A program made the position numbers and the translations under genes. A stretch of DNA of 64,000 nt, taken from contig NZ_KE386795.1 of NCBI RefSeq assembly GCF_000428745.1, forward strand, positions 270,692 to 334,691, given 5' to 3'. The notes under the pieces are model-generated. The model was not told the DNA's origin, ran no database searches, and saw only the letters and a program-made list of their open reading frames with translations. The stretch comes from Veillonella magna DSM 19857 (GTDB lineage: Bacteria > Bacillota > Negativicutes > Veillonellales > Veillonellaceae). The first letter of the stretch is position 1. Every line of letters starts with the position of its first letter. This document shows, piece after piece, positions 34,921 through 61,389 of the stretch.

Positions 34921-34995
34921 AAAGAGGACGACTCGTGCCTTGGCAGTTAGATTTAGTAAATGGCGTGCCTGCGACATTGAGTGGTCCTCTTTTTT
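34921..34995 (+). repeat. Hairpin-family element E1 (diverged), hpf-leuS
   Basis: An outer stem AAAGAGGAC/GTCCTCTTT continues as ACTC/GAGT. The inner stem is GGCA-GTTA with TGGC-g-TGCC, and an 11-nt loop GATTTAGTAAA caps it. Layout, bulge position and flanks match E6 at 60000 closely, including GCAGT and TGCCT, but the loop has drifted. A run of T follows, so it also looks like the hpf transcription terminator. Confidence 0.75.
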
Positions 34996-56872: not shown

Positions 56873-56940
56873 CGCCTCTCGAGGGATTGTATATAGTAGA
56901 GGGGTACATGATTTCCCCAATTATGGAGGCGATATACAAT
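56873..56940 (+). promoter_or_regulatory. Interleaved complementary segments over a start codon
   Basis: CGCCTC (56873-56878) is complementary to GAGGCG (56926-56931), and ATTGTATAT (56886-56894) to ATATACAAT (56932-56940), which includes the first two bases of the ATG. The order 1-2-3-4 with 1:3 and 2:4 pairing gives either two exclusive hairpins or a pseudoknot that would cover Shine-Dalgarno and start codon. It may also serve as a DNA operator. Confidence 0.5.
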
Positions 56941-57487
56941 GAATTATCTAAAAGAGGTTAATGCATTTCATGTGTGGAGTATGTTACATCCGGAGGTGTC
57001 GATGTCGGCAAGAATCTTATGGTATGTGCTCATACATTTTAACAATATAGGTTTTTGGCAGAAAACGTTTACGCTTTCAATGGACATATTGGCCTCTGCT
57101 ACCGGTTTATCAAGAGCTAAGTTAACAGAAGCACACGTCGCTTTACAAAAAGCCGGTCGCATTCGTTACATGCTGTGCGATGACAAGAAGTCTGCGATAT
57201 ACGAAATTATTCCGATGGCAGGTGAAGGAATACAACGAACATCGGAAGAGAAGTTATGTGATAAAGTACAAAATAAGTTGCTGGATAAGTCACTAAATGA
57301 CTCATGTGATATACCAAAAGCTAAGCAGCGAGATGAGCAACAAGCTGGGCGGGAAATAAGTAATAAGATGGGGAAAAGTGAGCAACAAGCTGGGCTGAAA
57401 AGTGAGTCACAAGATGAGCGGCAAAGTGAATCACGAGATGGGCGCATACATAGACAAGACAAGACATATCTAAAGAAACCACAGTAA
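56939..57487 (+). CDS. Winged-helix replication-type protein with repetitive tail
   Basis: The first 90 residues (HVWSMLHPEVSMSARILWYV, then MDILASATGLSRAKLTEAHV) resemble the N-terminal winged helix of phage or plasmid replisome organisers and DnaD-like proteins: helix, SAxxLWYxL, then a recognition helix. From about residue 115 the protein becomes a hydrophilic tail with repeated EQQAG and ES/QDE units built on short DNA repeats (GAGCAACAAGCTGGGC at 57326 and 57381). It probably derives from a mobile element. Expression may be controlled by the complementary leader segments. Confidence 0.55.
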   Translation: MNYLKEVNAFHVWSMLHPEVSMSARILWYVLIHFNNIGFWQKTFTLSMDILASATGLSRAKLTEAHVALQKAGRIRYMLCDDKKSAIYEIIPMAGEGIQRTSEEKLCDKVQNKLLDKSLNDSCDIPKAKQRDEQQAGREISNKMGKSEQQAGLKSESQDERQSESRDGRIHRQDKTYLKKPQ

Positions 57488-57933: not shown

Positions 57934-58203
57934 ATGATTACCAAACAACTTTCTTTTAAAGCGGATAGCATTCTATCTGATACGATAGACACAACATCGA
58001 ATACAACAACTATACCCGCAGATGAAGCTACCAACACTAATACCCATTTTTCTTACGCGTCACCTACTGGATCGTTATTAGTCCACGAAGATGTAATCGA
58101 TTACGAAACGCAATTAGCCTTGCGCGAGAAATGGAAGAACCTAACCATTACGGATAATTTTCTTTTTGAAAAAGTGATGCGCAACAAACGGGTTTACGCA
58201 TAG
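57934..58203 (+). pseudogene. Rpn-family nuclease, N-terminal fragment (Rpn1)
   Basis: The 89 codons open MITKQLSFKADSILSDTID, then a low-complexity Thr/Asn/Ala linker, then KWKNLTITDNFLFEKVMRNK, the conserved start of Rpn (RpnA-E, PD-(D/E)XK transposase-like) proteins. The frame stops where the family would continue into the nuclease core. The core is absent and two hairpin elements lie in its place. The remainder of the C-terminus appears at 58364-58732. Confidence 0.78.
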
Positions 58204-58205
58204 AA

Positions 58206-58268
58206 AGTAGACTATCAGTAACGAAAGCTCGGTCTATCGAAGAGCATTTCTTATACTGATAGTCTACT
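58206..58268 (+). repeat. Hairpin-family element E2 (forward)
   Basis: Outer perfect stem of 15 bp: AGTAGACTATCAGTA with TACTGATAGTCTACT. Inner stem GAAA-GCTC with GAGC-a-TTTC (one bulged A), loop GGTCTATCGAA. A pyrimidine tract CTCTTTTCTC follows. Confidence 0.88.
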
Positions 58269-58294
58269 CTCTTTTCTCTCCCTCCAGGGGAAAG

Positions 58295-58363
58295 AAGCGA
58301 TGCCCATATATCGCAAGAGTGTCATTCGCAAGACCTGACCTCTGAGATATATGGACATCGCTT
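58295..58363 (-). repeat. Hairpin-family element E3 (reverse)
   Basis: Outer stem of 17 bp with one mismatch: AAGCGATGCCCATATAT with ATATATGGACATCGCTT. Inner AGAG-t-GTCA with TGAC-CTCT, loop TTCGCAAGACC, the reverse complement of the forward loop type. The bulge lies on the opposite arm, as expected for the reverse orientation. E2 and E3 are separated by a small CTTTTCTCTCCC/GGGGAAAGAAG hairpin. Confidence 0.88.
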
Positions 58364-58732
58364 GTAAAAAATCTGTTTTATCTTTTACAATATATACATA
58401 CCCATGTAGTTCATGGTGACTTTGTAAAAGAAATTGATGAAGAATTAACTAATATAAAATTCAGTGAAACACAGGAGGTGGCCTATATGACCTACGAAAT
58501 GGAATTACTGGTGCGACATAATGATGGCATTCGTGAAGGAATCGCCATCGGACGTAAAGAAGGATTGAATCAAGGGCTAAAACAGGGGCAAGCCGTGGGC
58601 AGAAAATTTCAAGCACAAAAAATGGCCTTATCCATGCTAGAGGACAAGGCATCCATACCGTTGATTAGTAAGTATACCGGCTTAAACGAACAAGAAATTC
58701 TCAACCTCGCCAAAGAGCATAATCTGTTATAA
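58364..58732 (+). pseudogene. Rpn-family C-terminal fragment (Rpn1)
   Basis: The frame reads HGDFVKEIDEELTNIKFSE, then a helical region MTYEMELLVRHNDGIREGIA, IGRKEGLNQGLKQGQAVGRK repeats, and the C-terminal MALSMLEDKASIPLISKYTG/LNEQEILNLA helix pair. This matches the region after the nuclease core in Rpn proteins. A GTG at 58478 (after CAGGAGG) could start an 84-residue product, so the piece might still be translated as a small protein. Confidence 0.72.
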
Positions 58733-58750
58733 GCTAAAGAACTACCTTAT

Positions 58751-58794
58751 ACCGCCAAGATAGAGAGTAAGTATATTTTCTCTGTCTTGGCGGT
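58751..58794 (+). terminator. CCGCCAAG-type hairpin terminator, second copy
   Basis: ACCGCCAAGA pairs with TCTTGGCGGT with an inner AGAGA/TCTCT helix, followed by TTATTG. It is homologous to the hairpin at 56481. Confidence 0.75.
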
Positions 58795-58811
58795 TTATTG
58801 TACAGATAAAG

Positions 58812-58930
58812 CATTGTTTCCCACCGCCTTCGGTTAAGTTGGTGTGAGTCGGCTGTGAAGAAAGTAGTCATTGCATTGATGGACAGGCGATAGTAACGGC
58901 TGTGGTATATAATCGGTTAAGGAAGAGGGA
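58812..58930 (+). repeat. Duplicated CACCGCC block, copy 2
   Basis: Second copy of the block at 57532 at the same place relative to an Rpn gene. The right arm of the first hairpin has changed (AAGTTGG), so that stem is not conserved. Confidence 0.65.
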
Positions 58931-59000
58931 TTGTATTAACACTGAGAGCATGTATTAACACCGGGAGCATATATTAGCACTGAGCATAGAATAATGAACA
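58931..59000 (+). repeat. 17-19 nt tandem repeat array, copy 3 (Rpn2 leader)
   Basis: Three units of 17-19 nt (GTATTAACACTGAGAGCAT, GTATTAACACCGGGAGCAT, ATATTAGCACTGAGCAT) run into AGAATAATGAA at 58988. Confidence 0.65.
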
Positions 59001-59021
59001 GTCAAGAAGTTGGATAGGAAA

Positions 59022-59188
59022 GCCGTACTCCTTCCTCGTATTATTACGGCAAGGAGGGATTTTATGATTACCAAACAATTTACCAGGAAGGCTAATGGTA
59101 TTGCGTCTAATACAATAGACACAAATGCAGATGCAAGATACAATAATAACAAAGGAAGTGTATTGAATGAACACGGCGAAATATAAAT
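59022..59188 (+). promoter_or_regulatory. SD-masking leader and short upstream frame of Rpn2
   Basis: The leader 59022-59056 is identical to that of Rpn1. It is followed by ATG 59064, whose frame (MITKQFTRKANGIASNTIDT and on) stops after 41 codons at 59188, overlapping the actual Rpn2 start at 59167. This is the decayed original N-terminus, or by chance an upstream open reading frame. Confidence 0.5.
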
Positions 59189-59484
59189 TGCCAACTACAA
59201 AAGATTGGCATTATAGTAGGGAGTTAGATGTATCACGATTTTTAGTACATGATAAAACAAAGCTATACAATGCTTCGCAGTATCATATGCCAAAGTGGCA
59301 GGATGCAACGATTACTGAAAACTTTTTGTTCGAAAAAGTCATGCATAACAAACGAATTTGTAAGCGGCTCATCGAAAAAATTTTAGGCATTACCATTCAG
59401 TCTATCGAGTTTCCTGAAGCAGAAAAATCCATAACTATTCGTCGTGACAGTAAAAGCGTTCGTCTGGATGTATACGTAATATAA
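59167..59484 (+). pseudogene. Rpn-family nuclease, N-terminal fragment (Rpn2)
   Basis: The 105 codons include KWQDATITENFLFEKVMHNK, then CKRLIEKILGITIQSIEFPE and SVRLDVYVI, ending exactly where Rpn proteins place their first catalytic strand (LDVYV followed by a QxK-containing region). ATG 59167 follows AAAGGAAG. The catalytic core is missing and is replaced by hairpins E4 and E5. The C-terminal half resumes at about 59650. Confidence 0.8.
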
Positions 59485-59487
59485 AGT

Positions 59488-59557
59488 AGAGTCCTGTATA
59501 TAGGCATCACAAGTCAGGTCTAGCGAATGACGTTGTTCAACCTATATACAGGACTCT
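59488..59557 (+). repeat. Hairpin-family element E4 (forward)
   Basis: Outer perfect 17-bp stem AGAGTCCTGTATATAGG with CCTATATACAGGACTCT. Inner CAA-GTCA with TGAC-g-TTG (bulged G), loop GGTCTAGCGAA. CTTCTCC follows. Confidence 0.9.
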
Positions 59558-59579
59558 CTTCTCCCCGGTACTGGGAAAG

Positions 59580-59646
59580 AGGGATTCATAGATGCCGTAG
59601 ATGTGTCATTCGTAAGACCTGACCAGCGAGACATCTATGAATCCCT
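59580..59646 (-). repeat. Hairpin-family element E5 (reverse)
   Basis: Outer perfect 15-bp stem AGGGATTCATAGATG with CATCTATGAATCCCT. Inner TG-t-GTCA with TGAC-CA, loop TTCGTAAGACC. It is paired with E4 across a CTTCTCCCC/GGGAAAGAGG linker hairpin. Confidence 0.9.
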
Positions 59647-59649
59647 CGG

Positions 59650-59988
59650 AACGTTTTTTATTTCTTACAATACATTAACGGTCATGCACCACAAGGAAAG
59701 TTTGTCAATGAAATTGATACCGAAGTGGGCAAAGTAAAAGAAAGCAAAGAAATGGAGAAATCATATATGACATACGCAATGGAAATCGAAAGACACAGAC
59801 GAGAAGCGAAAAATATCGGAATCGCCATTGGACGCGAAGAGGGATTAGCTGCCGGTCGTAAAGAAAATTCACAAAAAATTGCCTTATCCATGCTTGAGGA
59901 CAAAGCATCCATAGCTTTGATTAGTAAATACACCGGCTTAACCGAACAAGAGCTCCATGCTCTCGCCAAAGAACATCATTTACTGTAA
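59650..59988 (+). pseudogene. Rpn-family C-terminal fragment (Rpn2)
   Basis: The frame reads YINGHAPQGKFVNEIDTEVG, KVKESKEMEKSYMTYAMEIE, IGIAIGREEGLAAGRKENSQ and ALSMLEDKASIALISKYTGL before TAA. The resumption point (FLQYINGH) is the same as in Rpn1, so both genes lost the same central segment. Last residues KEHHLL match KEHNLL of Rpn1. Confidence 0.75.
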
Positions 59989-59999
59989 CCCACATAACC

Positions 60000-60068
60000 A
60001 AGAGGGCAACTCATGTCTTAGCAGTCAAGTCTTACGAATGACATGCCTACGACATGAGTTGTCCTCTT
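60000..60068 (+). repeat. Hairpin-family element E6 (forward)
   Basis: Outer 18-bp stem AAGAGGGCAACTCATGTC with GACATGAGTTGTCCTCTT (one G-T pair). Inner GCA-GTCA with TGAC-a-TGC (bulged A), loop AGTCTTACGAA. TTTCCTTCTTC follows. Confidence 0.9.
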
Positions 60069-60096
60069 TTCCTTCTTCTTCTTTTATATATTCCTC

Positions 60097-60132
60097 CGCA
60101 AGACCTGACCTCTGAGCTATATGCGCATAGAC
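60097..60132 (-). repeat. Half hairpin element E7 (reverse)
   Basis: CGCAAGACCTGACCTCTGAG then CTATATGCGCATAGAC equals the right half of an E3-type element; the left half is missing. With E6 it preserves the forward-linker-reverse order of the other pairs. Confidence 0.7.
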
Positions 60133-60145
60133 TTTAATAACTACC

Positions 60146-60220
60146 CTGAAAGCATTAACTCTTGCTGAAAGAATTAACACTCACTGAAAGCATTAACACT
60201 GAGCGTAGAATAATGAATAG
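60146..60220 (+). repeat. 19-nt tandem repeat array, copy 4 (Rpn3 leader)
   Basis: Three 19-nt units CTGAAAGCATTAACTCTTG, CTGAAAGAATTAACACTCA, CTGAAAGCATTAACACTGA run into GCGTAGAATAATGAATAG. A masked ribosome-binding site follows (CCTCCT at 60251 with AGGAGG at 60272). Confidence 0.68.
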
Positions 60221-60416: not shown

Positions 60417-61389
60417 GGGAGTGTAAAATAGTTTGTGTAAACAGGTTAATATACTAGGCTCAATTATTCCCCTCATAATTGAGAAAACACATAGCAAGGA
60501 TGGTACTCATGACAAAACGTAAAGAAACTATACTAACTCCCGGTGAAAAATCGCTCAGCAAATTCTTGATAATTACGATCTAAAAAATACCCAGGATGTA
60601 CAAGATGCTTTAAAACAGGTGTTTGGCCCTATTTTTGAAGCTATACTAAAAGGTGAAATGCAAAACAAAGTGCTGGCCATGTATGCGCGCGGGATGAGCC
60701 AGCGTGACATTGCTGCAACCATTGAGAAGATATGTATGGATTCCAGCTCTCTCATGAACAAATTTCGAATATTACCGACTGCGTTATGGAAGAAGTAGAC
60801 CGCTGGCGTACGCGACCATTAAAGCCGTTTTATCCGTTTTCCTTCGTAGACTGCATCTATGTATCTATGCGGACAGAACGTGGCGTTCACCAGGTCGCTG
60901 TTTATGTGATGCTTGCTTACGACACCAATGGATATAAAGATGTATTAGGTCTTTGGATTAACGAAACGGAAAGCAAGCATGTATGGCGCTGTAAATGTGG
61001 AAGAAGCACGACGTGCGTTCGAAAAGTAAAAAAAGACTGGCAGGAGTATCCTGGTGCCATCGCTGTTTGGGAAAACAACTTTCAACACGTGGAACAGCTC
61101 TTCCACTATGGCAGTGCAGTACGAAAGGCAATGTACACGACCAACGCCATTGAAAGCGTAAATGCCAGTTTCCGCAAAGTCACGAAGAAAGGTTCCTTCC
61201 CTAACGAGGATGCTATTTTTAAAATTTTCTATCTTCGTATTCAGGAACTCTATAAGAAATGGACTTCACATCGTCTGGCAAACTGGGCAATGATCCGTAA
61301 CCAGCTGCTTATTGATGAACGGCTGGGACCTTTGATGGAAAAGTATGACAAAGATTTTTAAGAGTTTACACAAAATATTTGACATGCCC
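60417..61389 (+). mobile_element. IS256-family element, copy 2 (internally deleted)
   Basis: The element is 973 bp with the same termini as copy 1 (GGGAGTGTAAAATAG left, ATGCCC right) but lacks about 394 bp in two internal deletions. One lies between copies of AGCATGTATGG, which occurs twice in copy 1 about 210 bp apart; the other joins GCAAAA to CAAAGTGC over a 4-nt match. No clear 8-bp target duplication. Confidence 0.85.
60509..61361 (+). pseudogene. Defective IS256 transposase (copy 2)
   Basis: The reading frame is broken by loss of one A near 60549, by a two-base change near 60725 and by the two deletions. The segment with the second catalytic aspartate (SIDGVSGLEEG in copy 1) is gone, so it cannot be an active transposase. 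The C-terminal half is open from 60732 to 61361. Confidence 0.85.

What the first reader, a model, noticed from the sequence alone, without database searches (positions are those of the whole stretch)
58206..60132. Family of hairpins with conserved 11-nt loop, conserved bulge and covarying stems
Seen: six complete elements (34921, 58206, 58295, 59488, 59580, 60000) and one half (60097). The outer stems of 15-18 bp have unrelated sequences but stay complementary. Inside, a 4-bp stem varies with compensation (GTCA/TGAC, GCTC/GAGC), then a single bulged base, then a 2-4 bp helix that also covaries (GAAA/TTTC, CAA/TTG, GCA/TGC, AGAG/CTCT). The loop is nearly fixed: GGTCTATCGAA, GGTCTAGCGAA, AGTCTTACGAA and their reverse complements. 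Fixed loop plus compensated stems is the signature of a selected RNA or single-stranded DNA structure. I know no described element with this consensus, but could not search.
Basis: partly seen in the sequence, partly recalled or inferred. Interest (0 to 1): 0.85.

Follow-up and report, generated by a model that had tools for sequence, protein, structure and literature searches.

The report
Repeated terminator hairpins with conserved loop
About 80 copies of a small DNA/RNA hairpin with a near-fixed tip and ever-different, almost perfectly matched stems sit just after genes in this one bacterium, probably ending their transcripts, and they suggest that such stems can be re-copied in one step rather than changed base by base.

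Summary
The six elements and one half are members of a repeat with about 80 full copies in this 2.2 Mb genome. None was found in six congeneric genomes; one structural relative lies in another genus of the family. No Rfam match. Anatomy: near-perfect 17-19 bp outer stem of variable sequence, internal loop, 4 bp, usually a one-base 3' bulge, 4 bp, then an 11-nt tip (NGTCTNNCGAA), itself foldable as GG + 2 bp + TNNC tetraloop + A. Copies sit mostly 0-40 nt after a stop codon, on that gene's strand, followed by T-rich DNA: the position of intrinsic terminators. G-T pairs are rare, and elements with near-identical heads carry different but complementary distal stems. That does not look like base-by-base compensation. 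A second family with a different head, in a sister genus, shows both arms replaced together at an orthologous site, with the old 3' arm left as an orphan. This fits template-switch copying of one arm from the other. I read the family as a lineage-specific, REP-like terminator repeat whose head spread between gene ends and whose arms are rewritten. No RAYT transposase was found in this genome; the spreading agent and the loop's partner are unknown.

The parts
34921..34992 (+). Decayed copy, about 95 nt after the stop of an S30AE (hibernation factor) gene and before leuS
   Evidence: R1 39.4 bits; loop GATTTAGTAAA; neighbours
58202..58272 (+). Full hairpin (inner stem GCTC/GAGC), first of an inverted pair inside an rpn remnant
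   Evidence: R1 70.1 bits
58294..58364 (-). Full hairpin, type II, second of the pair; stem subfamily AAGCGATG found at several other loci
   Evidence: R1 84.5 bits
59488..59557 (+). Full hairpin, type I (TATAGG...CCTATA head), first of the second pair
   Evidence: R1 64.7 bits; fold -34.7 kcal/mol
59578..59648 (-). Full hairpin, type II, second of the second pair
   Evidence: R1 82.9 bits
59999..60069 (+). Full hairpin at the terminator position of an rpn C-terminal remnant
   Evidence: R1 79.2 bits; rpn end and headless paralogues
60091..60132 (-). Half element: 5' arm and core only, ending ...GCGGAGGAA, then the leader TATATAAAAG of the 60000 hairpin read on the minus strand
   Evidence: pattern match C1:330782-330800; sequence; other half elements
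59167..59484 (+). N-terminal remnant of an Rpn-type PD-(D/E)XK gene; about 341 bp of the gene is replaced by the hairpin pair
   Evidence: blastn against the intact paralogue C1:200-201k; intact paralogue is PF12784
59665..59989 (+). C-terminal remnant of the same rpn gene

Best explanation
The elements are a lineage-specific, REP-like repeat of hairpins that act as, or sit in, the intrinsic terminators of the genes before them. The head (loop, inner stem, internal loop) is the repeated, sequence-constrained module and has spread between gene ends. The outer arms are locus-variable and are kept perfectly complementary because one arm is re-copied from the other by template switching or fold-back synthesis during replication, often after recombination between heads left half-elements. 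Shown: copy number, lineage restriction, anatomy, co-orientation behind stop codons, T-rich 3' flank, loop constraint, and concerted replacement of both arms at an orthologous site in a sister genus for an analogous head family. Inferred: terminator activity in the cell, template switching as the copying step, and the same arm process in this genome. Unknown: what spreads the head and what, if anything, binds the loop.
For: 82 model hits in the own genome, reduced to 76 distinct elements; 0 in 6 congeners. 34 elements only behind a co-oriented gene against 5 only behind an anti-oriented one, 7 between convergent genes (p=2.4e-6 without correction for related copies), distances mostly 2-40 nt; T 48% and A 16% after the 3' arm. 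57 of 76 distinct elements have at least 15/16 Watson-Crick outer pairs, with 26 G-T in 1216 cells. Heads 79-88% identical while distal arms are 45-51% identical and 92-100% complementary. Loop entropy is concentrated at positions 1, 6 and 7. Sister-genus locus A: arms AAAGCCCCTATCTC (G015, G017 and the more distant G022, G041) against GAAAGAACAGGTCCC (five species), same flanks, old 3' arm orphaned downstream in G020/G021; locus E similar. Precedent for the process: PMC8794818.
Against: 36 of 82 copies had no recognised stop codon within 80 nt (pairs inside broken rpn genes, tandem clusters, contig ends, short fetched flanks). No strain of the same species was available, so no empty site was seen for this head; congeners are only about 75% identical. 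Arm replacement was seen in another head family, not in this one. Arms are not fully random: the outermost bases share a terminator-like AAAG. A recombining donor hairpin could also replace both arms. No transcript data.
Confidence: 0.6

Rival explanations
1. A regulatory RNA (or ssDNA) motif kept by host selection: a protein or RNA binds the GTCTNNCGAA tip at the 3' ends of about 60 transcripts. The head was copied around because it is useful, and the stem only presents it.
For: Loop sequence kept while inner-stem sequence changes; strict co-orientation; the tip can fold as GG/2 bp/TNNC/A, and a relative in another genus has the same tip with an extra A-T pair.
Against: Absent from congeners at the same genes (pyrD, dapA, a molybdopterin-type gene, ptsI-like). 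Decayed loops exist. No functional theme was apparent in the few neighbouring genes looked at, which was not a systematic survey.
Confidence: 0.3
2. Classical REP/BIME elements moved by a REP-associated tyrosine transposase (RAYT, Y1 HUH).
For: Extragenic hairpins, tens of copies, bulge, inverted pairs, gene-3' positions.
Against: No Y1_Tnp match in this genome although controls ring. Sister-genus copy number does not follow Y1_Tnp (G019: 7 heads, 0 Y1; G040: 0 heads, 12 Y1). The stem is variable and the loop conserved, the reverse of the usual REP layout (own knowledge).
Confidence: 0.08
3. An old functional RNA whose stems drifted by ordinary stepwise compensatory mutation.
For: Very strong covariation.
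Against: Scarce G-T pairs, near-perfect stems despite full sequence turnover, lineage restriction, both arms replaced at an orthologous site.
Confidence: 0.1
4. The head is a mobile insertion (or site-specific recombination site) that enters the loop of existing terminators; the distal stem is the recipient's own terminator.
For: Distal 10-12 bp look like ordinary terminator stems; rpn 3' ends exist with and without the head; several half-elements end at the same point of the core.
Against: At dapA the five congeners share one stem and this genome has another. Rpn ends could equally be head deletions. Half-element junctions in the sister genus fall at other points. Total stem length is nearly constant.
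Confidence: 0.2
5. The PD-(D/E)XK Rpn proteins encoded beside the window hairpins move them.
For: Both rpn (PF12784) and hairpins are in this genome and absent from six congeners; hairpin pairs lie inside rpn remnants.
Against: Most copies are not near rpn (limited to fetched flanks). Genus g2 has 3-7 PF12784 genes per genome and no such hairpins. The sister-genus family exists without PF12784.
Confidence: 0.04

Closest known systems
REP elements / BIMEs / REPINs
   Same: Extragenic, palindromic, tens of copies, at gene 3' ends, sometimes in inverted pairs
   Different: No Y1 transposase match in the genome; loop conserved and stem variable; about 70 nt; T-rich tail and terminator position
Intrinsic (Rho-independent) terminators, including repeated stem-loop families reported by Petrillo et al. 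2006 (PMC1590033)
   Same: GC-rich stem with A-rich 5' and T-rich 3' sides, just after stop codons, co-oriented
   Different: Much longer composite hairpin with a repeated sequence-specific head
Template-switch mutations that create and maintain RNA hairpins (PMC8794818)
   Same: Perfect stems and multi-base compensatory changes made in one event
   Different: Here seen at gene-end hairpins that share a repeated head; the cited work studied other RNA genes (rRNA, microRNA)
Second head family in sister genus g4 (GCCTCCAWAGNRANCTAAGTCG), found here
   Same: Conserved head on near-perfect locus-specific 12-21 bp arms, at gene 3' ends
   Different: Different head; 1-10 copies per genome in 9 of 14 species

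Membership tests
REP/BIME (RAYT-mobilised) | Short extragenic palindrome in many copies | tested here: met
   About 80 copies, 3 of 82 inside an ORF of at least 100 aa
REP/BIME (RAYT-mobilised) | Y1 (RAYT) transposase in the genome | tested here: not met
   PF01797 no match in G000, controls positive
REP/BIME (RAYT-mobilised) | Conserved stem with a conserved tetranucleotide tag such as GTAG/CGTC at one end | tested here: not met
   Outer stem and flanks vary between copies; no common tag seen by eye in the listing
Intrinsic terminator | Stem-loop followed by a T-rich tract | tested here: met
   T 48% against A 16% in the 10 nt after the 3' arm
Intrinsic terminator | Just downstream of and co-oriented with a gene | tested here: met
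   34 co-oriented only against 5 anti only; 36 copies had no stop codon within 80 nt
Intrinsic terminator | Terminates transcription | not testable with these tools
   No RNA data
Any Rfam 15 family | Score at or above the gathering cut-off | tested here: not met
Template-switch hairpin rewriting | Both arms change together while flanks and head stay | tested here: met
   Sister-genus locus A; not tested for the window's own head, no close relative held
Template-switch hairpin rewriting | Event polarised on a species tree | tested here: inconclusive
   Outgroup sharing (G022, G041) only; no tree built, recombination between species not excluded

The most novel reading that the evidence does not exclude
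A new class of self-spreading terminator hairpins in this bacterial family: lineage-specific heads act as mobile, structurally recognised modules, and each new copy gets a custom perfect stem by fold-back copying. Evolution by one-step stem rewriting would then be routine at gene ends, and several head families would have arisen independently.
Probability: 0.2. Interest if true: 0.85.

Novelty: new variant of a known kind. Interest (0 to 1): 0.6.

Why it matters
Covariation is the standard proof of selected RNA structure. This family is a clear case where strong covariation probably arises by copying one arm from the other, so covariation tests could be misled by such repeats. It also gives a natural system, with orthologous sites in related species, for testing template-switch hairpin evolution in bacteria, and a repeat at terminators with no transposase of the expected (Y1) kind.

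Tried and rejected
Rfam at gathering and relaxed thresholds: only chance hits. The exact core in the genome collection gave one record (a Gemmatimonadetes MAG, no matching stem); 47 viral contigs hold the 19-mer but without the stem, most of them one recurring sequence. A protein search to name the organism found nothing and a phage search did not help, so the taxon is not established; Negativicutes, probably Veillonellaceae, is an inference. Plasmids: no match. Y1 transposase: absent here and uncorrelated in the sister genus. Rpn as mobiliser: no correlation across the family. An automatic stem-length scan overran into A/T tracts and was replaced by fixed 16-pair counts. The automatic terminator scan (loops of 3-8 nt) cannot score these long-loop hairpins.

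Full report
OBSERVATION. The hairpins are real. Folding and inverted-repeat search give the stems at the stated places. The pattern GTCAGGTCTWNCGAATGAC with up to 3 mismatches has 72 matches in the whole genome and 0 for the reversed control. A covariance model built from 16 gap-free type II copies finds all six window elements and 82 distinct places in the genome, at 33 to 89 bits. On that alignment 24 of 26 pairs change on both sides; the covariation score is 0.829 against 0.247 +/- 0.023 for shuffles and at most 0.214 for slid partners. Caveat: these copies were picked by loop and then kept if at least 12 of 18 outer pairs formed. The 84-row alignment (28 pairs, 766 two-sided changes, score 0.868) is fitted to the model and includes three wrong-strand rows.

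ANATOMY. Total 64-72 nt: outer stem 17-19 bp; internal loop (two main kinds, YATC/TCAA and CTC/TNCG); 4 bp; one 3' bulge (absent in a minor subtype); 4 bp; 11-nt tip NGTCTNNCGAA. Over 70 distinct loops, GTCT and CGAA are almost invariant (0-5 exceptions per position) and positions 1, 6 and 7 vary in 13, 24 and 39 copies. Recency alone would spread changes evenly, so the loop is sequence-constrained. The tip can fold as GG, 2 bp (T-A, C-G), TNNC tetraloop, A. The one strong relative outside this genome (G008, 56 bits) has the same layout with a third pair: GG-TAC-TATC-GTA-A. It stands 22 nt after the stop of a 630-aa ORF on the same strand, on an unrelated perfect 17-bp stem.

DISTRIBUTION AND POSITION. 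None of six congeners and no other genome among 61 of the order has a match at E<=1e-4 except G008 (stricter filters, which gave three further weak matches: one more in G008 and one each in G020 and G021). In this genome 34 copies lie only behind a co-oriented gene, 5 only behind an anti-oriented one, 7 between convergent genes, and 36 have no stop codon within 80 nt. The 3' flank is T-rich. At four gene ends examined in congeners other hairpins stand instead; dapA shares one 17-bp terminator in the five congeners shown, with a different head.

HOW THE STEMS CHANGE. Within subfamilies the 45-50 nt heads are 79-88% identical while the distal 11 bp differ strongly (45-51% identity; 37-47% for the inner 7 bp against 27-36% random) yet stay 92-100% complementary. 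G-T pairs are rare. Base-by-base compensation should leave G-T intermediates. In sister genus g4 I found a second family with another head. Its orthologous gene ends in 12 species were compared. At locus A, G015, G017 and the more distant G022 and G041 share stem AAAGCCCCTATCTC (with one substitution in G041); five other species carry GAAAGAACAGGTCCC at the same place with the same gene-side flank, and G020/G021 retain the old 3' arm as an orphan downstream. At locus E, G021 has a new stem and the old 3' half survives downstream. So both arms were replaced together. The simplest process is duplication of a 3' half followed by re-copying of the other arm, i.e. template switching, described for other RNA hairpins in PMC8794818. 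Half-elements are also common in the window's own genome, including the half at 60091-60132. Import of a whole hairpin by recombination is not excluded.

FUNCTION. Terminator role: inferred from position, orientation and T-tract; untested. Spread of the head: inferred from copy number and lineage restriction. No Y1 transposase match exists in this genome. Rpn nucleases, whose remnants hold the window's two hairpin pairs (intact paralogue PF12784), do not co-occur with hairpins across the family. Whether the loop is kept by a host partner or by the spreading machinery cannot be told from sequence.

NOVELTY. It resembles REP elements and intrinsic terminators but fails the RAYT and conserved-stem features of the former, and carries a repeated head the latter lack. 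Hence a new variant of a known kind. The paper searches did not find a description, but the library is partial.

Noticed in passing
window 57934-58735 and 59074-59989: Two degenerate rpn (PD-(D/E)XK) genes whose central part is replaced by a pair of opposed hairpins; in the second about 341 bp of the gene is replaced, and similar hairpin-bearing copies lie at C1:545k and C28. One intact 342-aa copy is at C1:199.9-200.9k.
   Followed up: partly
window 60732-61361: Fragment of a Mutator-family transposase (PF00872, profile positions 127-212 and one more stretch).
   Followed up: no
window 58932-58984 and 60146-60200: Short 19-bp tandem repeats (CTGAAAGCATTAACACT-like) upstream of the rpn remnants; similar tracts stand before other rpn copies.
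   Followed up: no
window 57334-57444: Imperfect 24-bp tandem repeat, about 5 copies, inside the 182-aa ORF 56939-57487 with no Pfam match.
   Followed up: no
L015, L001, L012, L016 (C8:28.6-29.1k, C1:199k, C6:109k, C17:16k): Tandem or chimeric elements: 5' arm of one copy joined at the core to a following copy or to another 3' arm. In this genome several independent-looking junctions fall just after ...CGAATGA; cause unknown.
   Followed up: partly
L222-L233 (sister-genus locus J): Same stem with different apical hairpins in related species (G011/G017 against G020), so heads as well as arms can be exchanged in place.
   Followed up: partly
G007, G010, G012, G014, G016, G018 (genus g2): 3-7 PDDEXK_2 (PF12784) genes per genome, while the other genera searched in the family lack them apart from the window's genome; possible horizontal source of its rpn genes.
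   Followed up: no
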